Below are positions 2 through 10,187 of a stretch of DNA of 64,000 nucleotides, piece by piece (the stretch's first letter is position 1; the number at the start of each line of letters is the position of its first letter). The notes under the pieces were generated by a model. It searched no databases. It was given only the letters and a program-made list of their open reading frames with translations, and was not told the origin of the DNA. The translations under genes were made by a program, and so were the position numbers. Source of the DNA: an uncultured Pelagibacteraceae bacterium. GTDB taxonomy: Bacteria > Pseudomonadota > Alphaproteobacteria > Pelagibacterales > Pelagibacteraceae. Location: contig CACDZR010000001.1 of assembly GCA_902557235.1 (NCBI GenBank), forward strand, positions 1 through 64,000. Direction: 5' to 3'.

Positions 2-892
2 TTAGAGGCACAAATTAAAAAAAATGATTTAGAGAAATCTGAAGCAATAAAGAAAGCTATAGAGAAAGACAGAGTTTCGAATAAGGAGCACTATGATGCT
101 TTATTAGAAACTGCTATTAAGAAAGATAGAGAAGATCAACTTAACAAACATAGTGAAGATAAAAATAAATGGGAGTTAGAAAAGAATAGATTAAACAAAC
201 AAATACAAACTTTAAATCAAACTGTAAATCAAGGTACCACTGTAGATCAAGGTTCTGGTGCAGAAATTTCACTTGGGGAATTTCTAGAAAAAATATTCAA
301 AGATAAAAATGATAAAATTCAAGAATATGAAAAAGGCGAGTCAGGTGGAGATTGGATACAAGAAGTTATTGAACAAGGATCGGTAATTAGCAAAATTCTT
401 TATGAAAGAAAAAAAACTAAGGCCTGGAGTAATAAATGGATAGGTAAGTTGCAAGAAGACATGAAGGAGTCAGGATCTGATATTGGTATAATATTTTCTA
501 GAACGCTACCTAAAGATTTTCCTAAAGACGCACAATTTGATCACAAGGGTAATATTTTTTTATGTAAATATGACTATGACGTTTTAAAGACATTGGCACA
601 AACGCAAAGATATTTACTTACTCAACTCTCAAAAGAAAGAAAATCGGGTAAAGAAAATGAACTTTCTGCATTAAAGTTTTGGGAAAACCCAAAAGTTAAA
701 AACGCAACTTTTAAATCAATAGAGGATAAATCTGACACAAGAAAAAAATTAAAATCTGCAAAAAAAAACATTGAAGATGCAATAACAAAATTAGATTCGA
801 TGGACATTAATTTAGAGGAACTTTATTCTGAAATAGAAAAAATAGGGCTTTCAGCATTTTTAGACAAACACAGGGACATGAAGTTGAAATAA
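2..892 (+). CDS. DUF2130 nuclease-like protein, 5' end missing
   Basis: The reading frame is open from base 2 to the stop at 890-892, so the gene starts before the window. The visible N-terminal part (about 75 residues) is charged and coiled-coil-like. The C-terminal part matches what I know of the DUF2130 family: a GGDWIQEV segment near base 350, then YERKKTKAW, and then GSDIGIIFSRTLPKD. The spacing of the Asp in GGDW and the E-x-K in YERKK suits the PD-(D/E)XK nuclease fold, to which I believe this family has been assigned; that assignment is from memory. The cellular role is unknown. The next small ORF starts 2 bp after the stop, suggesting one transcript. The internal ATG at 449 is not the true start, because conserved sequence lies upstream of it. 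Confidence 0.8.
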   Translation, partial: LEAQIKKNDLEKSEAIKKAIEKDRVSNKEHYDALLETAIKKDREDQLNKHSEDKNKWELEKNRLNKQIQTLNQTVNQGTTVDQGSGAEISLGEFLEKIFKDKNDKIQEYEKGESGGDWIQEVIEQGSVISKILYERKKTKAWSNKWIGKLQEDMKESGSDIGIIFSRTLPKDFPKDAQFDHKGNIFLCKYDYDVLKTLAQTQRYLLTQLSKERKSGKENELSALKFWENPKVKNATFKSIEDKSDTRKKLKSAKKNIEDAITKLDSMDINLEELYSEIEKIGLSAFLDKHRDMKLK

Positions 893-1577: not shown

Positions 1578-2705
1578 ATGAATTTTTTAGATAAATTTAG
1601 ATACACTTATGATGATTTGAATGAATTAGGGATTGTTCAAAATAACAAAAACGATACTAAAAATTTTAATAATCAAAACTTAAGAAACTTACTATCAAGT
1701 TCAGTCAAAGTGAGTGAAAATTTGTTCCCAAAAATTGCCAATTCAATTGACAATGTTTTTAAAAGGCTTGGTGTAAAAAATAATTTTAATTTTTTTATCA
1801 CTGCAAATCATATTCAAACTCAGGCAGCGTGCGCAATGATGCCCCAAAGTTTGAATGCAGAAATAATTATTACTTCAAAAATGGTTGAATTGTTAAATCC
1901 TGGTGAGTTAGAGAGCGTTATTGCCCATGAGATTTCTCATTTCTATTATCAACACAGCCTTTATCCACCCATTGAAAAAGCAAGAACAAGGACTGAATAT
2001 CTTAATTTTCTTAATTTAAGTAGAGCCGCAGAAATCTCAGCTGATCGTGCTGGATTATTAGGCTCAGGGAGTATTGAGAATTCCTTAAGAGCGATGCTAA
2101 AAATATCTACAGGTCTTAGTGACGAACATATCTCTTTTAATTTTAGTTCTTATTTAGATCAATTGAGAGAATTAAAAGAGTTACAAGGAAACAGTAATTT
2201 ACTTTATGCTACTCATCCAACATTTCTTAATCGAATGCAGGCATTGATATGGTTTTCAATGAGTCATGAATACAATGAATTTTTTAAAACAGAGAAAAAA
2301 GGTGTCTATGACCTGAAAGCGGTTGATAAGAAGATTAATGAAAGTATAAAAAAAGTAACTGGAAATGAGCTAGATAACTCTAACAAAGAAATAATTAATA
2401 AAGCATTATTATGGGGCTCACTGAGTATTTATCTTGCAGATAAAAAATTTTCTAAAGTTGAACAAGAAAAATTCAAAAAGAGATTTGGAGAAAAAGCAGC
2501 AGTAAGTATAAAAAGTCTTTTAAACATATCAAAGATGTCTGTAGTGGAAAAGAGAATTGAAAATGCCTTTAACGAGGCTAAAATTTTAATGAAGTCTGAT
2601 AAACAGAGGATTATTTCAACTTTAAAAGAAATATTTGATGAGTCTGATAATCATAATAAAGATGCAAGTTCTATTTTAAAAAAATTAATTGATACTATAA
2701 AATAG
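1578..2705 (+). CDS. M48-family metallopeptidase, soluble
   Basis: The 375-residue product carries the zincin motif HEISH, with His117, Glu118 and His121. A third ligand, Glu152, lies in AAEISADRAG, the ExxAD signature of peptidase family M48. The domain before it contains NFFITANHIQTQAACAMM and the membrane-insertion-like TSKMVEL strand common in M48 proteins. HPTFLNRMQAL near residue 214 matches the HPxxxxR element of the family. Unlike HtpX or BepA there is no signal peptide and no clear membrane segment, so it is probably cytosolic. The C-terminal 130 residues form a Lys/Glu-rich helical region with no recognised domain; part of it resembles a tellurite-resistance-type helical bundle only loosely. 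Its stop is 7 bp from the stop of the convergent PDZ protein. Confidence 0.85.
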   Translation: MNFLDKFRYTYDDLNELGIVQNNKNDTKNFNNQNLRNLLSSSVKVSENLFPKIANSIDNVFKRLGVKNNFNFFITANHIQTQAACAMMPQSLNAEIIITSKMVELLNPGELESVIAHEISHFYYQHSLYPPIEKARTRTEYLNFLNLSRAAEISADRAGLLGSGSIENSLRAMLKISTGLSDEHISFNFSSYLDQLRELKELQGNSNLLYATHPTFLNRMQALIWFSMSHEYNEFFKTEKKGVYDLKAVDKKINESIKKVTGNELDNSNKEIINKALLWGSLSIYLADKKFSKVEQEKFKKRFGEKAAVSIKSLLNISKMSVVEKRIENAFNEAKILMKSDKQRIISTLKEIFDESDNHNKDASSILKKLIDTIK

Positions 2706-2712
2706 TGGTAAA

Positions 2713-5337
2713 TTATTTATTGTACTGAGATCTTAAATTTGCGGCTAAATCTCTCATTTCTTTAGCTCTTTCTCTAATCATTTTATCGGTATTATTTGTT
2801 AAAGCATTCCATCGACTATATTCTTTTCTTAAAATCTTAAGCTTTTCGTCTTTAGTCATATCTTTATTAATCCCGAACACGCTTTCCTCTGCCTCTTCAC
2901 CAAAATCTACAAATTTTACAGATGAAGTTTTTTGTTTTTTAATTTCTTGATATTTCCCTTTGTTTAATTCTAGTTCCTTAGAAACTTTGTCTATAAACTT
3001 ATTTTCTTTACTATTAAAAGTTTCATCTTTTGTCGCAAGATTTAGTAAAAAATCTATTATTTCATATCTTTCGTGTATTATAGAATTTTTCTTTAGGTCT
3101 TTTAGAATATCATCTAAATTTAATTTTTGATTTAAAGATTTTTCATAATTTTTTTTCAAACTAAGTATTTTATGGATATTTCCTTCAACAGAAAAATCAT
3201 CATATCGCACTGAATCTTTGATTTTTTCTAAATTGGCTTTCTGATTATTTTGATCATCCTGGTTTAAAGCTAAGCTTAAAGCAATTTTTAGATCATTATA
3301 TTTACGTCTATTAATTTCTAAATATCCAGGCTGTTTATATTCAACTTCTATTTCAGAGGACGAATAAGATAAAATATCTGTATAATCATTATATTCATCA
3401 AATCCTTCTGAGTAACTGTCTAAAAAATACTCCTCTGCTCTGTAAGTTGGACTATCGTAAGAAATAAATCTCCCATTGTTTTCATCAAACTTTTGATCTT
3501 CAGTGCAGATAAAAGTTCTAAAAGACAGTTTTCTTTTTCCATACTTTGGTAATTGTAATTTTGAGTAAGGAAAAGCTAATTCTGATGGTTTATATTCATA
3601 AGGCTTTAATTCTACATTTTGAACCAATATTCCATTACCTTCAGACCACGATAAATCTTCTGTTTTTACCACATGGCAATTGTTGAGGAAATATTGCTCT
3701 GTGCTTTCTCCATTATCTGTAATTTTGAAGTATTTGTTCTCATCCAAGTCGGTCACATCATAGACATAAATTTTAAGATAAATTACTTTACTAGCAGTTT
3801 CATTATTAAATATTTCTTCATCACTAGGTAAATTTAATTTAACAACAAATGATTCTTTTCCAGCAACTTTCTTTTTAGTGACACTTGTTGACATATAAAT
3901 TTTATCTTGGTAATCGGAGCCATAATCATTTTCATCATATTCTGGCTCATCTTGAAGATCCATTTTTTCAATTTCTTTAATTCTCTCAAGATTAAAATTA
4001 GGATATTCTAAAAAAAAGCTTTTACAAAAATCATCTACTGCTAATTTTACTTTTGCTTTATTAAATTTATATCTTTTTTCAAACCAAGATTCTAAATAAT
4101 TTGGGATTTCTTCAAATCCATTTGTAGAGCTTGTTGTGCTTAACTCAGCATGTTTTTCTTTATGTTTTTTTATAAACCATAATTTCTCTTTTGATTGGTA
4201 TTTAATATTGATATTTTTCCTCTTATCTATCATTTCATTAAAAAAAAAGTTTAAAGATGTCTCTGAAATTTCATCTACTAACAGTTCTTTTTTTTTATCT
4301 TTAACAGAAATTAATTTTACGAAGTTTTTTATATTTTTAGACACATCTTCGTCCCAACTACCTCCGATAACATCTCCTGATAAAACAAATGAATAGCAAC
4401 AATCTTTTTTAGTATTAAGATTCATTAATTTTGAAATAATTTTTGAGTTAAAAATTAAAGTAAAAAAATTGAGTTTGAAATTGATATCTTTGTATTCAGG
4501 TTTCAATAAACTTGTAAGAAGTTTGGCATCTTTGTTTTTCCAATCTTTTATATAGTCAGAATTATAAGCATGTCTTGCATCAGAAAAACGTTCTGCAATA
4601 GTTTCTAACTTTAGAATTTCCTCACGCCTTCCAACCCAATTTTCATGGTTATAACCATAGTCTGCATCTACCCACTCTTTAAACAATAGTGATCCTGCTT
4701 TTTTCAACCAATAGTCATCACATGATTTTTTGTTCAATTCTATTGCTTTTTTAAAATTTATTAATTTGATTTTAAATTTTTTTATCTGAGAAATTTTTTT
4801 TCTTTTTATTTTAAATTCAATAGTATCTCCAACTTTATACTTTGATTTCTCTTTGTTTAAATCATTAATAGAATTTATCTTTACAGAATTGATTTCTAAT
4901 AATATGTCTTCTTGCTCAATATAATCGTTGTAATTATATTCAATACCATAGCTTTTAATTACCATTTGTTTTTTTTCTTCTTTTATATCTATTCCCCAAA
5001 CAGCATGAGTATTTTTATAATTTTCAAAAGTTAATGTTTTGATTTTTACTTTTTGAATTTTATTTTTTCTTTCTACTTCAAAAGTAGCTTCATCTCCCCA
5101 GTTTATTTTGTTTATTTCATTGTCAAATTCAATCTCTTTATTGTTTACCGCAATACCATTTATAGATTTGATTTTATCACCGAGTAATAACTTTCCGTCA
5201 GCGATACCTCCTTTTTGTATGAAAACTATGAATAATTTGACCTCGTTATTTTTTGGATCTTGAAATAATTCTATGTCAAATCTTACTTTATGTTTTAGTC
5301 TTTGAGGGTCTTTTTTAATATTTTTTTTTTTAATCAC
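2713..5337 (-). CDS. Two-PDZ / TerB-like / J-like multidomain protein
   Basis: This 874-residue cytosolic-looking protein starts with GTG at 5337, 8 bp after the Hsp70 stop, so the two genes are almost certainly one operon. Residues 18-103 and 112-195 look like two PDZ domains (GGIADGKLLLGDKIKSING; IEQEDILLEINSVKI). The middle (200-690) is not recognisable to me; it contains an acidic stretch and a beta-rich part. Residues about 755-802 resemble a TerB-type helical bundle. Residues about 820-874 (DMTKDEKLKILRKEYSRWN, then a helix ending AANLRSQYNK) resemble the terminal helices of a J domain of the kind that follows TerB, but no HPD motif is present. Coupling to the adjacent Hsp70 is the natural inference. 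There is no signal peptide. I cannot name a family for the full length. Confidence 0.8.
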   Translation of the reverse strand: MIKKKNIKKDPQRLKHKVRFDIELFQDPKNNEVKLFIVFIQKGGIADGKLLLGDKIKSINGIAVNNKEIEFDNEINKINWGDEATFEVERKNKIQKVKIKTLTFENYKNTHAVWGIDIKEEKKQMVIKSYGIEYNYNDYIEQEDILLEINSVKINSINDLNKEKSKYKVGDTIEFKIKRKKISQIKKFKIKLINFKKAIELNKKSCDDYWLKKAGSLLFKEWVDADYGYNHENWVGRREEILKLETIAERFSDARHAYNSDYIKDWKNKDAKLLTSLLKPEYKDINFKLNFFTLIFNSKIISKLMNLNTKKDCCYSFVLSGDVIGGSWDEDVSKNIKNFVKLISVKDKKKELLVDEISETSLNFFFNEMIDKRKNINIKYQSKEKLWFIKKHKEKHAELSTTSSTNGFEEIPNYLESWFEKRYKFNKAKVKLAVDDFCKSFFLEYPNFNLERIKEIEKMDLQDEPEYDENDYGSDYQDKIYMSTSVTKKKVAGKESFVVKLNLPSDEEIFNNETASKVIYLKIYVYDVTDLDENKYFKITDNGESTEQYFLNNCHVVKTEDLSWSEGNGILVQNVELKPYEYKPSELAFPYSKLQLPKYGKRKLSFRTFICTEDQKFDENNGRFISYDSPTYRAEEYFLDSYSEGFDEYNDYTDILSYSSSEIEVEYKQPGYLEINRRKYNDLKIALSLALNQDDQNNQKANLEKIKDSVRYDDFSVEGNIHKILSLKKNYEKSLNQKLNLDDILKDLKKNSIIHERYEIIDFLLNLATKDETFNSKENKFIDKVSKELELNKGKYQEIKKQKTSSVKFVDFGEEAEESVFGINKDMTKDEKLKILRKEYSRWNALTNNTDKMIRERAKEMRDLAANLRSQYNK

Positions 5338-5345
5338 AAAAAAAA

Positions 5346-6893
5346 TTATTCAATTACTATATGTTCAATCGCTTCATAGTTTTTTCTTAAATCTTCAGCA
5401 GACTCTGGTCTAATTGATACTTCGTATTTTTCCTTAGTTGCCTCGTCCTCGAAAATACAATGAAGTTTACCAGAAGTGTCATAGGTATAGGTTACATCGA
5501 TAGGTCTACCCTTAGGCTTTTTGTCCGGAAATTTTAATTCACCTTGGTGAATAATATTTACAAATTCTCTATTTCTTTCTCTTCCTTCACTTTGAGTAAT
5601 ATCAATCGAGATAGACTCTTGATCATCATAAAGTGTTACTAATCTTGAACTTTTTGTTGCTGGCAAAGGAGTATCTCTATCTATCAAAATTAAATTAGCC
5701 GTAACTTGTCTATTCAAAACAGGGTCGTCTTCTTGAACTAATGTTCCTAAATAAAAATTACAAACATCTTGAAGTTTAACGTTTGAAATTGCTTTTTTTT
5801 GTGCCTCATTTAAATTTTTCTTTGATTTTAAACCTGCGTAAATCGCAGCCCCTGCTGCTACAGCTTCATCAACGTTCACACCTTTCAATGGAGGCTTTTT
5901 CATAACCTGTTCAATAGTTTTTGTAATTATTGGAATTCTAGTTGAACCACCAACAAGCAATGTATGACTTATGTTTTCAGCTTTTAATCCACTGCCATCA
6001 AGAGCCTCTTCCATTAGCATTTTAAGTTTTTCAATGTGTGTTTGTATTGATTGTTCAAATTCTGCTCTTGTAATTTCTATCTCTTTTGCACCATCAGGTC
6101 CATCAATCGTTTCTATTTGTTTATCTCTTACTGACAAAACTCTTTTTACCTGTTCAGCTACTTCCATATATTTAGAATAATTATTTTCGATATCTAATTC
6201 TTTACCAGTTAATTTTTTATATTTTTCATTTATTAAATTTATTAATTCTTTATCAAAATCTTTACCGCCTAGCCATTTATCACCTCTACTTGTTATTACC
6301 TCAACTTCTTCGCCCTGCACTTCACAAACTGTTACATCAAATGTTCCACCCCCTAAATCAAAAACCAAAATTTTTCCTGTTATTTTTTTTACATTTGGTA
6401 GGCTTGCATAATAACAAGCAGCAGCGGTTGGTTCATTGATTAGACTTATAACCTCAATCCCAGCCATTTTTGCGGCATCTAAAGTTGCAACTCTTGCTTT
6501 TTCAGCAAATAATGCTGGAACAGTTATAACTGCTTTTTTAACATCAGATGCATAGCCTTTGAGTTTCGATAATATGAAAGAAGAAATTTGAGCTGGAGAA
6601 TAATAATCTTTATTTTTTTCATCTTTATCTACCCATTTTCCCTCATCTACTGAATAAACAACATCATTTTCCATTTGCCTTTTGGTTTCAGTAACAACCT
6701 GTTTTGGAGCTGTTTCTAAAGCATCAAGTGCTTTGTCACCGACAATCATATTTTGATCTTTGATATAAACAGAACTTGCTGTAATTTTTTTATTATTATC
6801 TGTAGATGCTAATACTTCAGGTGTACCTAAATCATCCAATTGTGCAATCGCACTATATGTAGTTCCTAAGTCTATTCCAATTATTTTACTCAT
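5346..6893 (-). CDS. Lidless DnaK/Hsp70-like chaperone
   Basis: The 515-residue product has a complete Hsp70 nucleotide-binding domain: GIDLGTTYSAI at 6-16, the second phosphate loop FDLGGGTFDV at 178-187, NEPTAAA, and the adenosine motif LVGGSTRIP near 312-322. After about residue 385 a short beta-type substrate domain follows (YLGTLVQ, then TPLPA). The protein then ends at about the point where canonical DnaK (about 640 residues) starts its alpha-helical lid. The tail DLRKNYEAIEHIVIE replaces the usual EEVD or DDKK-type end. It is probably a specialised ATP-driven chaperone rather than the housekeeping dnaK, which normally sits with dnaJ and grpE. The downstream PDZ/TerB/J-like gene is the likely partner. 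On the minus strand a TATAAT lies at 6906-6911, but no good -35 was found. Confidence 0.92.
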   Translation of the reverse strand: MSKIIGIDLGTTYSAIAQLDDLGTPEVLASTDNNKKITASSVYIKDQNMIVGDKALDALETAPKQVVTETKRQMENDVVYSVDEGKWVDKDEKNKDYYSPAQISSFILSKLKGYASDVKKAVITVPALFAEKARVATLDAAKMAGIEVISLINEPTAAACYYASLPNVKKITGKILVFDLGGGTFDVTVCEVQGEEVEVITSRGDKWLGGKDFDKELINLINEKYKKLTGKELDIENNYSKYMEVAEQVKRVLSVRDKQIETIDGPDGAKEIEITRAEFEQSIQTHIEKLKMLMEEALDGSGLKAENISHTLLVGGSTRIPIITKTIEQVMKKPPLKGVNVDEAVAAGAAIYAGLKSKKNLNEAQKKAISNVKLQDVCNFYLGTLVQEDDPVLNRQVTANLILIDRDTPLPATKSSRLVTLYDDQESISIDITQSEGRERNREFVNIIHQGELKFPDKKPKGRPIDVTYTYDTSGKLHCIFEDEATKEKYEVSIRPESAEDLRKNYEAIEHIVIE

Positions 6894-6947
6894 TTTATAT
6901 TATCAATTATATTAAAATAATAATATTCTACTGACATAAGTTAACCG

Positions 6948-9900
6948 ATGAATATTGAAGATACAAACAAAATATCAAATTTAGATATATTAGATACCAA
7001 ATGTAATTTCAAAATATTAGAATTGCAAGGTATGAGTTTGGATGATGATTGGTCAAAATTATCTAAACTTAAAAATTTAGAAACATTAATACTTAAAGAT
7101 AGCTATATAGATTTTAAAAAATTTTATAATGCAATTTTTTCACTTAAAAAATTAAATAAATTAAGATTAAATCATTACTGTTATTTTAATAAATCAAAAA
7201 ACGACAAATTTGAAAAAGATTCAAAACTGTCCTCTTTAAAAGAATTTTGTCTAGAATTTCCGAGACCAGATGAACCAGATTTTGAGATAAATAATTGGTC
7301 ACAAAAGAGTTATGAAAACAAGTTTAATTCAATAACTGATGTTCCGAATAGCCATATTATATTTCCTAACCTTGAGATTATTGAATTGATAAATTATGAA
7401 ACTTATAAACAAAGAGTACTTAAAGAAGATGAATACAACAAAAAAATATTCAAAGAAATTTATTGGAATACAAAATTAGATGATCTCAAAAAATTTAAAA
7501 AATTAAAAAATATAGTTATTAATAATGGTAATATAAGTGATTTATATACAAACGGATTAGATCATTTTGTAAAACTTTTAGAAAAACAGAAAATTAAATT
7601 TACTATAAATAATGTTAATGAAACGTCAAAATTAAATCTTGACTTTAAAACCGTTAATTTTTTTTGTGGTTTTGAGGATACTAAAGCTAATCTTTGTCTT
7701 CAATTAGATAACGAGTTTTTAAATATCTTACGAGAAAATAATATAGTTATAGATCAAAATGTTTTTAATATAAGTGAATTTGATTATTACAAAAATACTC
7801 ACAAATATAGCAAACCCTATGTAATCAAAAAAAATAAAAGTTATGAAGAAGTAATCAAATCAAATCCAACTTGTTTCATTTTTAAATCATGTTTTAGGTT
7901 TTTAAATACTAATAATTCTGGAGCTGACAGAGGAAAAAAATTGGATGTTATGGAACATCTTTTTAAAAATCAAAATAAATTAGAAACAATTATTTTTGAT
8001 TTATCCAAAAATGATAATTATGACACGGGTATCTGGATTTGGAATTCAGATCAAATAAGTTTTTTAGTAAAATTTATTTATGAACTCAGATTAAATAATA
8101 AAGATACTCAAATATTTATTTATCATCCTGAAATTAAAAAGTTATTAAATGAAAAAGATAGTTCAGACAATTTCAAAATTCACTTAATTTATCTTTATAA
8201 CTCAATTAAAATTAATAATTTAAAAGATAATCTCACAATATTGGGAGCAACAGATAAAGATTTAGAATTATTGACTGATAAATTTATAAATGAAAATGTC
8301 AACCAAGTAGTTGTTGTAGATGATATTTTTTATAATAGATCTAACTACTTTCCCGATCAAACATTCATAAATAATGATCAGTTAGATGATTTAAAGAGTC
8401 ATTATCCAAAATTTATCAATGATGATGATAAAAAATGGTCTAAATTAAACCACCTGTTTAAATACGTATATGAAGAGATAATTAGAATAATTGGATTTTC
8501 GGATACTGACTTTAAGCCAGATGAGGATAGCTTAATTTTAGTAATCAAAAAAACTGCAATAGACAAAATTCCAAATATAAATTTTAAAAAGATATATATT
8601 TATTTTGGGTCTTCTTTGCATCATGTTTCTCATCAAATGACTTATACAGAAAAAGATTGGAATGCTAAAAAAATTGTAGGAGCACTAGTTAATAATAATG
8701 AAGAGGGGATAAATAAGATTAAAGATAAGTTATTTTCTGTTGCAACAAATATTAGTGAAAAATTTGTTTTATCAAATGATTTTAAAGATAGTAATTTATC
8801 TAAAGAAGATTTTTTAAAACCTACAGATTTCACTCAGATCGTAGATAATATAGAAATTAAAGATGATAAAATTAAAAACCTTACCCATTGTTGGATTGAG
8901 GGCGTAAATCCATGGCAAGAAAAATATATCAAATTAGATGAATTTGATAAATTTATACCGACAGAGAATTTAGAGTATTTAAAATTAAGTGATTGTTTAC
9001 AAAGTGAGAATTTAAACTTACCTCATTTTCCAAAGTTAAAAATTCTAAAAATGAATTTTTTTCAAAATCATCATAGAAAATCTTTAGATAAGGTAACATT
9101 ATCAAAATTTGAGAACTGTCCCAATCTTCAAAAAATTGAAATTAATAATTTGTATAATTTTTATAATAAAAGACTATTCAAAAATACTTTAGGTTTTACA
9201 GGATATTCAACTAATTTAAGTTATAATGATACTTGGTCTTATATAAACGTAGATTTTTCACAGCTTCATAATTTAAATAAACTGGAGGAAATAAATATTT
9301 ATCCAGGGATATTGGCTTCTGATTTAAGTAAATTAAAATCTGTTGAAAATTTAAAAAAAATAAGTCTCTCAGTAATGCATTTTAATAAAGATGATCATTT
9401 AAGTGTTTATGAGCCCCAAAAAGAAATTAGTGATCAAGACTTATCATTTTTTAAAAATTCCAAAAAAATTGAGGATATTACTTTAAGTTTAGGAAATCGT
9501 CCTTTTAAAGATGATCACTATGGGAATATTTCATCTAGTTACAAAGGAAGTGGTGAATTTATAAATTTTATAAATCATAAAATAAAAAAACTATCATTGA
9601 ATATAAATGTGGACATCAAAAATCAAACGATTATTCAAGATATAATTAATAATATCACAAACAGACTTCTATCATTAGAAGAACTCAATCTTACCTTTGG
9701 TATCGCTATTAGATCAGAGTATTTTGACTATTACTTATCTGAAGATAAACAATTTTCTCATAAACTTGATACACAAGTTTTAGATTTTAAGAAAATTTGT
9801 AAACTAAAGAAACTAAAGAGTCTTTGTATACAGCAGTATGGTGATGATACATATATCCCATTTAAATCGATAAATTTTGATCAAATAATTAATCTAAAGG

Positions 9901-10187
9901 AGATTAAAACTTTAGATGTAATTTGGAATTCACTAAGTTTTCCTGAGTTTAGAAAAGCGAGAATAGCATTTAAAAGTGAGAAATATGATAATCCTAAATT
10001 TTATGATGAATACATAGAGGATTATGAGGAGGATAGTGATTATAGAAAAAACTGGAATAGAATGGATCATATCAATACGGACGAATTGGATTGGTATAGC
10101 TTAGAGTCTAAGTATTTAGATCTTGAAAAAGAAGAAAATAAAAAAAAATATGAAAAGAAATTAATTATTAAAAAAAAGAATAATTAA
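6948..10187 (+). CDS. Large leucine-rich-repeat-like protein
   Basis: This 1079-residue frame starts with ATG 54 bp from the divergent Hsp70 start. Irregular LRR-like units occur at both ends. In the first 200 residues: LKNLETLILKDSYID and LKKFKKLKNIVINNGNIS. After about residue 670: LEYLKLSDCL, FPKLKILKMNFFQ, CPNLQKIEINNLYN, LEEINIYPGI, LSLEELNLTFGIAI and LKKLKSLCIQQYGDD. The middle 400 residues are not LRR-like and contain NQVVVVDDIFYNRSNY; I recognise no family there. No signal peptide or membrane helix is seen, and the tail is very basic (KKYEKKLIIKKKNN). LRR solenoids usually bind proteins, so it may be a recognition or scaffold partner of the Hsp70 module, but that rests on divergent arrangement only. 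Base use is even more A+T-rich than in the flanking core genes. Confidence 0.8.
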   Translation: MNIEDTNKISNLDILDTKCNFKILELQGMSLDDDWSKLSKLKNLETLILKDSYIDFKKFYNAIFSLKKLNKLRLNHYCYFNKSKNDKFEKDSKLSSLKEFCLEFPRPDEPDFEINNWSQKSYENKFNSITDVPNSHIIFPNLEIIELINYETYKQRVLKEDEYNKKIFKEIYWNTKLDDLKKFKKLKNIVINNGNISDLYTNGLDHFVKLLEKQKIKFTINNVNETSKLNLDFKTVNFFCGFEDTKANLCLQLDNEFLNILRENNIVIDQNVFNISEFDYYKNTHKYSKPYVIKKNKSYEEVIKSNPTCFIFKSCFRFLNTNNSGADRGKKLDVMEHLFKNQNKLETIIFDLSKNDNYDTGIWIWNSDQISFLVKFIYELRLNNKDTQIFIYHPEIKKLLNEKDSSDNFKIHLIYLYNSIKINNLKDNLTILGATDKDLELLTDKFINENVNQVVVVDDIFYNRSNYFPDQTFINNDQLDDLKSHYPKFINDDDKKWSKLNHLFKYVYEEIIRIIGFSDTDFKPDEDSLILVIKKTAIDKIPNINFKKIYIYFGSSLHHVSHQMTYTEKDWNAKKIVGALVNNNEEGINKIKDKLFSVATNISEKFVLSNDFKDSNLSKEDFLKPTDFTQIVDNIEIKDDKIKNLTHCWIEGVNPWQEKYIKLDEFDKFIPTENLEYLKLSDCLQSENLNLPHFPKLKILKMNFFQNHHRKSLDKVTLSKFENCPNLQKIEINNLYNFYNKRLFKNTLGFTGYSTNLSYNDTWSYINVDFSQLHNLNKLEEINIYPGILASDLSKLKSVENLKKISLSVMHFNKDDHLSVYEPQKEISDQDLSFFKNSKKIEDITLSLGNRPFKDDHYGNISSSYKGSGEFINFINHKIKKLSLNINVDIKNQTIIQDIINNITNRLLSLEELNLTFGIAIRSEYFDYYLSEDKQFSHKLDTQVLDFKKICKLKKLKSLCIQQYGDDTYIPFKSINFDQIINLKEIKTLDVIWNSLSFPEFRKARIAFKSEKYDNPKFYDEYIEDYEEDSDYRKNWNRMDHINTDELDWYSLESKYLDLEKEENKKKYEKKLIIKKKNN

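What the first reader, a model, noticed from the sequence alone, without database searches (positions are those of the whole stretch)
2713..10187. Divergent chaperone cassette: lidless Hsp70, PDZ-PDZ-TerB-J-like protein, and a giant LRR-like protein
Seen: the 515-residue Hsp70 keeps its ATPase signatures but ends where the lid should begin. An 874-residue gene follows after 8 bp and combines two PDZ-like domains with a TerB-like segment and a J-like tail without HPD. A 1079-residue LRR-like protein starts 54 bp away on the other strand. Known: J proteins and Hsp70 usually pair through HPD, TerB modules occur in stress/conflict systems, and LRRs recognise proteins. Inference: a self-contained ATP-driven sensor or disaggregation unit, possibly for stress or phage defence, with non-canonical J coupling. 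I know of no described system with this make-up.
Basis: partly seen in the sequence, partly recalled or inferred. Interest (0 to 1): 0.8.

Follow-up and report, generated by a model that had tools for sequence, protein, structure and literature searches.

The report
Accessory Hsp70–protease machine with rewired J-domain
Some of the ocean's most abundant bacteria, and scattered distant relatives, carry an optional gene set for a stripped-down Hsp70 chaperone with its own co-chaperones and a metalloprotease, in which the chaperone and its J-domain partner appear to have swapped the usual contact between such proteins for a new one.

Summary
In many relatives a membrane-anchored GrpE-like gene precedes Hsp70 and the TerB protein has a TM anchor. 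The window's clade lacks both, has tandem PDZ domains instead of the anchor, and a divergent LRR gene beside Hsp70. In 289 alphaproteobacterial genomes the M48 family occurs in exactly the 7 with a strong TerB/J match, and the Hsp70 family in 6 of them. The tail is J-like (profile score 24.6 against at most 15.2 for controls) but shows no HPD. Correspondingly, 0 of 30 system Hsp70s keep the arginine that HPD contacts (DnaK R167), and replacements at the two sites go together (S-L, E-Q, Y-R). The Hsp70s form one clade apart from the few DnaK, HscA and HscC sampled. The cassette sits in a variable site; some copies lie near DISARM, Mza or restriction genes. Best reading: an accessory Hsp70-protease machine with an HPD-independent J partner, plausibly for defence. 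Function is untested.

The parts
5346..6893 (-). Lidless Hsp70 (515 aa): complete ATPase domain, linker VKLQD, SBD-beta, then about 20 residues ending HIVIE; serine at the position of DnaK R167 and tyrosine at Q378
2713..5337 (-). Co-chaperone-like protein (874 aa): PDZ about 16-102 and about 112-191, helical region about 195-457 (mostly low model confidence), beta-rich domain about 480-665, TerB 727-800, HPD-less J-like tail about 815-872 with the loop RWNALTNN
   Evidence: (mean pLDDT 63, pTM 0.39)
1578..2705 (+).
6948..10187 (+). LRR-like protein (1079 aa); optional member, divergently beside Hsp70 in the window clade
2716..2916 (-). Last 67 residues of the 874-aa protein holding the J-like tail, HPD replaced by N-A-L
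2..892 (+). DUF2130-type protein, cut by the contig start; a frequent island neighbour in relatives, not shown to belong to the machine

Best explanation
It is an accessory, dedicated Hsp70 chaperone-protease machine. The widest-spread, presumably ancestral operon is TM-GrpE-like / lidless Hsp70 / TM-beta domain-TerB-J* / cytosolic M48 metalloprotease. J* recruits ATP-bound Hsp70 at the usual J site. It triggers hydrolysis without HPD, because the Asp35-Arg167 contact has been replaced on both sides. The lidless SBD-beta holds clients only briefly, the GrpE-like protein resets the cycle, and the bound client is presented to the M48 protease. In the window's clade the membrane anchor is absent and PDZ domains stand in its place, the system's own GrpE gene is absent, and an LRR protein has been added beside Hsp70, probably to choose clients. 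Shown: gene content, co-occurrence, domain identities, J-like homology, absence of HPD and of R167/Q378, conserved acidic C-terminus of the Hsp70. Inferred: ATPase stimulation by J*, exchange-factor role, hand-over to M48, client recognition by PDZ/LRR, which form is ancestral, and the purpose. I put defence against phages at about 0.45 and inner-membrane or protein-damage control at about 0.4.
For: Linkage: in 289 alphaproteobacterial genomes TerB/J* is strong in 7 (weak in 2 more); the M48 family (E<=1e-25) is in exactly those 7, the Hsp70 family (E<=1e-150) in 6 of them. Five of the six non-Pelagibacter loci carry GrpE-like, Hsp70, TerB/J*, M48 in the same order. A Phycisphaerae locus has the first three. 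GrpE: PF01025 in 8 of 10 members, best 1.4e-8. J*. Contact loss: R167 kept in 0 of 30 system Hsp70s and in 4 of 4 references; Q378 to Tyr in 28 of 30; N170 kept in 30 of 30. Replacement pairs at 167/35: S-L 10, E-Q 14, Y-R 4, N-R 1, G-R 1, the window's own loop being read. The D35-R167/Q378 contact and its suppressor pairs are published (PMC8215388, PMC7289447, PMC13012618, passages). C-terminal residue E 28, D 2, preceded by I or V in 30 of 30. HExxH in 13 of 13 M48 proteins aligned. TerB in 25 of 25.
Against: No experiment. The covariation at 167/35 rests on about two or three coupled switches on the tree, not 30 independent events. No complex was modelled, so J* docking is not shown; the profile match to J domains has probability 44 only, its weight resting on the controls. 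The GrpE call is weak by profile comparison (probability 14) and the four proteins (three alphaproteobacterial, one Phycisphaerae) do not match GrpE in Pfam. Eleven loci with the upstream region covered have no linked GrpE-like gene, so a dedicated exchange factor is not always needed. G375 has TerB/J* and M48 with no Hsp70 of this family found, and the Phycisphaerae locus has no M48. One copy (G305) has a stop inside the Hsp70 frame.
Confidence: 0.55

Rival explanations
1. J* is a degenerate, non-stimulating J-like module, as in mitochondrial Pam16: it only tethers or restrains the Hsp70, and ATP hydrolysis is slow or triggered by the host's DnaJ.
For: No HPD in the tails aligned. [quoted passage not shown] The host genome has 3 other J-domain matches.
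Against: Pam16 works with an HPD partner (Pam18); none is recognised in the operon. The Hsp70 has itself lost R167 and Q378, so an HPD protein should couple poorly (inference). W is invariant and N nearly so in the loop, which argues for a kept function.
Confidence: 0.25
2. An ordinary inner-membrane protein quality-control set (a DjlA/HtpX-like stress cassette), with no role in defence.
For: TerB-J resemblance to DjlA over 116 columns (probability 55); HtpX-type M48 matches below cut-off; PDZ domains like those of HtrA proteases; TM anchors in 19 of the 31 loci; two copies (L058, L061) among genes that look like housekeeping ones by eye.
Against: Patchy, accessory distribution (7 of 289 and about 8 of 247 genomes), insertion in a variable site, and DISARM, Mza or restriction genes near some copies are more typical of defence or mobile cargo.
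Confidence: 0.4
3. A phage-sensing abortive-infection system: the LRR/PDZ part detects a phage or damaged protein and the Hsp70-J* machine licenses the M48 protease to kill or arrest the cell.
For: Defence genes near some copies, a variable insertion site, variable client-facing modules (PDZ, LRR, TM) on a constant core. Dedicated Hsp70/GrpE/DnaJ sets are reported in other conflict systems (PMC7159879, passages).
Against: No PADLOC model matches the core proteins; no match in the viral contigs (pattern-based scan) or plasmids (one query) searched; L058 and L061 sit among genes that look like housekeeping ones. Neighbour enrichment was not tested statistically.
Confidence: 0.3
4. One reading: Hsp70 + 874-aa protein + LRR protein as one cassette, M48 a bystander.
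For: Strong matches to the LRR family occur only with the system in 247 Pelagibacterales genomes (4 of 4 strong).
Against: M48 co-occurs in 7 of 7 alphaproteobacterial genomes; no LRR gene was labelled in the 6 non-Pelagibacter loci and none matched in G092, G114, G156. Weak matches to the LRR protein's N-terminal 190 residues occur in three further genomes, none with a TerB/J* match.
Confidence: 0.05

Closest known systems
E. coli DjlA (TM - TerB-like - J domain) with DnaK
   Same: TerB module followed by the start of the J region over 116 aligned columns; TM anchor at the N-terminus in most members (the anchor and TerB-like nature of DjlA are recalled)
   Different: DjlA keeps HPD and works with DnaK (PMC8215388, passages); here there is no HPD, an extra beta-rich domain, and a linked private Hsp70 and protease
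E. coli HscC with DjlB/DjlC
   Same: Specialised Hsp70 with its own J proteins; sporadic distribution (PMC8215388, passages). DjlB and DjlC read HPE instead of HPD near the N-terminus, so a milder departure from HPD is already on record in this pair's sequences
   Different: HscC keeps R167 and a lid region and lies outside the system clade; its neighbours in K-12 include no GrpE or M48 gene
Hsp70/GrpE/DnaJ modules in GAP1-N2 GTPase conflict systems (PMC7159879)
   Same: Dedicated Hsp70, GrpE and a J-bearing protein in an accessory locus (passages)
   Different: Those are GTPase-centred with FNIII-DnaJ fusions; no TerB in that text (0 occurrences) and no M48 partner or HPD-less J in the passages seen
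CoCoNuT Hsp70-like CnuD (PMC11090510)
   Same: Hsp70 NBD/SBD used in a restriction-type system (passages)
   Different: Fused to or encoded with McrB/McrC homologues; no DnaJ, GrpE or TerB in that text (0 occurrences)
Pam16/Tim16 J-like protein of the mitochondrial import motor
   Same: J-like domain described as unable to stimulate Hsp70, at a membrane (PMC5773037, passages)
   Different: Works as a pair with the J protein Pam18 and a general mitochondrial Hsp70
HtpX and other M48 proteases
   Same: M48 family match and catalytic motifs
   Different: No transmembrane segment in any system member (peak hydropathy at most 1.41); that HtpX is membrane-embedded is recalled

Membership tests
Hsp70 superfamily | Complete actin-like ATPase domain with phosphate and catalytic residues (DnaK D8, K70, E171, D194, T199) | tested here: met
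   PF00012 E=1.1e-89; residues conserved
Hsp70 superfamily | Alpha-helical lid | tested here: not met
   Ends about 20 residues after SBD-beta
DnaK / HscA / HscC types | Clustering with one of the known prokaryotic types | tested here: not met
   19 system Hsp70s form one clade, 100/100, apart from 10 rows (8 DnaK, 1 HscA, 1 HscC); references were few and long branches were flagged
J-domain proteins | Helix II - loop - helix III region aligned to J domains | tested here: met
   Profile score 24.6 versus at most 15.2 in controls; helices 829-848 and 852-873 in the model. No structure search reached the tail
J-domain proteins | HPD tripeptide | tested here: not met
   None in the 16 tails or the 11; N-x-(L/Q/R) at the place in most
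J-domain proteins | Stimulation of Hsp70 ATPase | not testable with these tools
   Needs an assay
TerB domain | PF05099 match | tested here: met
   25 of 25 members at E<=0.1; window 25.6 bits against cut-off 24.4
GrpE nucleotide exchange factors | PF01025 match and profile similarity to canonical GrpE | tested here: inconclusive
   8 of 10 rows of A10 match, best 1.4e-8; profile score 28.7 versus 19.0 permuted and 16.0 reversed, but probability 14; 0 of 4 scanned match; no such gene in the window
M48 peptidases | HExxH plus distal Glu | tested here: met
   PF01435 E=4e-14; HExxH in 13 of 13; E152 invariant
LRR proteins | LRR fold | tested here: inconclusive
   Pfam below cut-off; Foldseek best hits are LRR proteins at E=3e-4 with low TM
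Known anti-phage systems (PADLOC 2.0.0) | Match of core proteins to a model | tested here: not met
   0 matches at E<=0.1 for Hsp70, TerB protein, M48, LRR and GrpE-like

The most novel reading that the evidence does not exclude
A further kind of prokaryotic Hsp70 machine beside DnaK, HscA and HscC, in which evolution replaced the near-universal HPD-Arg167 trigger by a different contact between Hsp70 and its J-like partner, and coupled the chaperone cycle to a private M48 protease for defence against phages or invading proteins.
Probability: 0.35. Interest if true: 0.9.

Novelty: new variant of a known kind. Interest (0 to 1): 0.74.

Why it matters
The HPD motif is treated as the defining trigger of Hsp70. 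A natural pair in which both sides of that contact have changed in step would show which parts of J-domain action are dispensable, and gives ready-made orthogonal Hsp70-J pairs to test. It would also add a chaperone-guided metalloprotease to the accessory gene pool of marine bacteria, with swappable anchor, PDZ and LRR parts.

Tried and rejected
Pfam, NCBIfam and PADLOC scans of the core proteins gave no system name. HMMER profile of the tail against PDB sequences: no J domain among nine chance-level matches. Comparison of the GrpE-like family with the host's own GrpE alone was uninformative; Pfam and the profile test with controls helped. The idea that the M48 C-terminus is another TerB domain was not supported (46 columns, probability 6). 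The idea that the conserved Hsp70 C-terminus is a PDZ ligand was set aside: it ends in Glu/Asp and is equally conserved in members without PDZ domains. A mobile origin in viruses or plasmids was sought and not found (profile patterns, one protein of L059 only). In 349 genomes drawn from the phylum only the own genome matched at E<=1e-10, which shows how rare the system is. The fold search of the 874-aa model was filled by PDZ matches, so the beta-rich domain, TerB and J-like tail were not tested by structure search. G162, one of the 8 matches, matched only the PDZ part and its locus shows no Hsp70 or M48, so I dropped it from system counts; G057, missed, was added. L041 (cut at the contig start) and L063 (no Hsp70) are not in the 30 Hsp70s. 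L037, L038 and L045 start inside Hsp70 and say nothing about GrpE. Six loci are the same contigs as loci by length (L032, L033, L036, L039, L040, L045). Literature: nine searches in an open-access library; (TerB family tellurite resistance / Hsp70 family protein / M48 family, at least two) found 0 papers. Most subscription papers are not held, so a description there (for example in the 2012 survey of Ter systems, recalled) is not excluded. The papers cited were seen as passages only.
Full report
What is there. The window is the start of a contig of a Pelagibacter-type genome (1.0 Mb, 83% complete; the nearest relatives are titled Pelagibacteraceae). The three ORFs of the finding exist as described.

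Relatives. A scan of genome contigs with the TerB/J region gave 25 loci; none came from viral contigs or, with one query protein, plasmids. In 24 of the 25 loci Hsp70 precedes the TerB/J gene; M48 follows in 23 of these, missing only in the Phycisphaerae locus L048. The 25th, L041, is cut at the contig start. Search of 289 alphaproteobacterial genomes gave six strong non-Pelagibacter members in five families, and two weak matches. Five of the six (L058-L062) have GrpE-like, Hsp70, TerB/J, M48 in that order; the sixth (L063) has TerB/J and M48 only. The M48 family at E<=1e-25 occurs in exactly the seven genomes with strong TerB/J (the own one included), and the Hsp70 family at E<=1e-150 in six of them. 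I chose these cut-offs to leave out other M48 proteases and DnaK. The M48 profile holds rows from six of the seven genomes and the Hsp70 profile from five, so the informative part is that no other genome of the 289 matched and that G375, not in the M48 profile, did (E=9e-105). In 197 Pelagibacterales genomes M48 was found in six. Five are members known; the sixth, G057, proved to have a TerB/J gene beside it, cut by the contig end, which the plain search had missed.

Two forms. In 19 of the 31 loci the TerB/J protein has a hydrophobic segment near its start (peak hydropathy 1.8 or more). PDZ matches occur in 11 of 25 members, in number the window and L024-L033, which have the long N-terminus; these 11 lack the hydrophobic segment (peak at most 1.26). 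The remaining two loci are L041 (cut) and L063 (1.27). So PDZ tandems stand in the place of the membrane anchor. The GrpE-like gene is present in 15 of 29 loci with Hsp70 (13 of the 15 with a clear hydrophobic segment), absent in 11 where the upstream region is covered (L024-L030, L034, L040, L042, L044) and unknown in 3. In all 11 where it is absent, an LRR gene lies divergently next to Hsp70; L031 and L032 have both. The window genome shows one GrpE match only, on contig C3 beside its canonical DnaK.

J-like tail. Pfam and HMMER find no J domain. A profile of 25 tails (19 different) was aligned to a profile of 23 rows: 21 HPD-bearing J domains of relatives, DjlA's, and one stretch from DjlC that is a misplaced HPD match and adds noise. 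The match runs over 54 collinear columns with score 24.6 and probability 44. Controls: 102 slices of other alignments at most 14.1; 59 column permutations at most 15.2; reversed profiles 8.6 and 8.9. In this alignment the tryptophan sits on the Tyr before HPD and N-x-(L/Q/R) on H-P-D. No tail aligned shows HPD. For comparison, E. coli DjlB and DjlC, the partners of HscC, read HPE near their N-termini, so HPD is not wholly invariant among working J proteins.

Hsp70. The protein is lidless in the complete members aligned. In DnaJ-DnaK, H33 contacts L391, and D35 contacts R167 and Q378 (PMC8215388, passages). R167H suppresses DnaJ D35N, and D35N suppresses R167A (PMC7289447 and PMC13012618, passages). 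Among 30 system Hsp70s (29 loci plus the window) none has Arg at 167 (E 14, S 10, Y 4, G 1, N 1) and none has Gln at 378 (Y 28, F 1, H 1). N170 is kept in 30, T173 in 29; L391 is L 25, V 4, M 1. The host DnaK, E. coli DnaK, HscA and HscC keep R167. The residue at 167 and the residue at the D35 place form fixed pairs: S-L 10, E-Q 14, Y-R 4, N-R 1, G-R 1 (window read by eye). On the tree this is two or three coupled switches, one of them inside Pelagibacter between L033 and the window clade. The last residue is Glu in 28 and Asp in 2 of 30, preceded by Ile or Val in all 30, including members under 40% identical, which suggests a functional C-terminus. The 19 system Hsp70s in the tree form one clade (100/100) apart from 10 DnaK, HscA and HscC rows (long branches flagged, few references).

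Other parts. TerB matches in 25 of 25; the order TerB then J resembles DjlA. M48 motifs are conserved, with no membrane segment. The N-terminal model fits PDZ domains of the HtrA kind. The 1079-aa protein is best read as an LRR protein, on modest evidence. Strong matches to its family occur in 4 of 247 Pelagibacterales genomes, all with the system; three genomes without a TerB/J match have weak matches to its first 190 residues only.

Context. On the mlaC side the cassette adjoins the same genes in the window and in L024, L025, L027 and L030; on the other side genes that I read as rpoD and dnaG (by eye, not by a search) follow in L027 and L030. I took six of the 29 genomes that lack the cassette, close in mlaC (skipping G082, which lies at a contig end). 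In all six mlaC and rpoD-dnaG are neighbours with one to four variable ORFs of 80 aa or more between. In one (G013) these include two cytosine methyltransferases and an HNH restriction-type gene. Other copies lie at other sites. Known defence genes lie within 10 kb of some copies: DISARM DrmA, DrmB and a DrmMII-type methyltransferase (L029), MzaE (L028), a helicase with MzaC as second-best family (L025, beside an HSP90-like ATPase), and a type III restriction pair (L063). A resolvase, an integrase and a C5 methyltransferase flank L059. I chose these neighbours by eye and scanned only part of them, so no enrichment is claimed. L058 and L061 sit among genes that look like housekeeping ones.

Reading. 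The parts amount to an Hsp70 cycle (targeting J*, motor, likely exchange factor) with a protease, tethered by TM or PDZ. That the J* tail is the cognate activator through a rewired contact is the best explanation of the paired changes. That the client goes to M48, and that the purpose is defence, are inferences. No such system was met in nine literature searches of the open-access library (listed in Tried and rejected).

Noticed in passing
L143:5164-7263: G015, which gave no TerB/J match, has in its ampD-mlaA-mlaC region a different 699-aa protein weakly similar to the N-terminus of the LRR protein, beside an HNH158-type gene and a TM0106-type RecB-like helicase.
   Followed up: partly
L016:15088-18462: 1124-aa TM0106 RecB-like nuclease/RNase H plus AAA helicase with partial MkoA-type PADLOC matches; relatives recur near the cassette in several Pelagibacter loci, in some with an ExoI-like gene.
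   Followed up: partly
window:1076-1552: 158-aa protein with a CxxC-type zinc-finger-like pattern and no Pfam match at E<=0.001; relatives (HNH158, my label) recur in these islands.
   Followed up: no
L017:13856-14911: RmuC family protein (PF02646 E=1e-71); similar genes lie near the cassette in L031, L032 and L038, each with an ExoI-like gene.
   Followed up: no
L058:7412-8521: The Hsp70 gene of this copy (G305) is interrupted by a stop codon, while the GrpE-like, TerB/J and M48 frames are open.
   Followed up: no
L034:11858-13226: One or two short genes of one family (about 200-235 aa; one member scanned, no significant Pfam match) follow M48 in L034, L037, L040, L042 and L044.
   Followed up: no
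L064:1416-2843 and L064:4213-5664: E. coli K-12 DjlB and DjlC, partners of HscC, carry HPE instead of HPD near the N-terminus.
   Followed up: no
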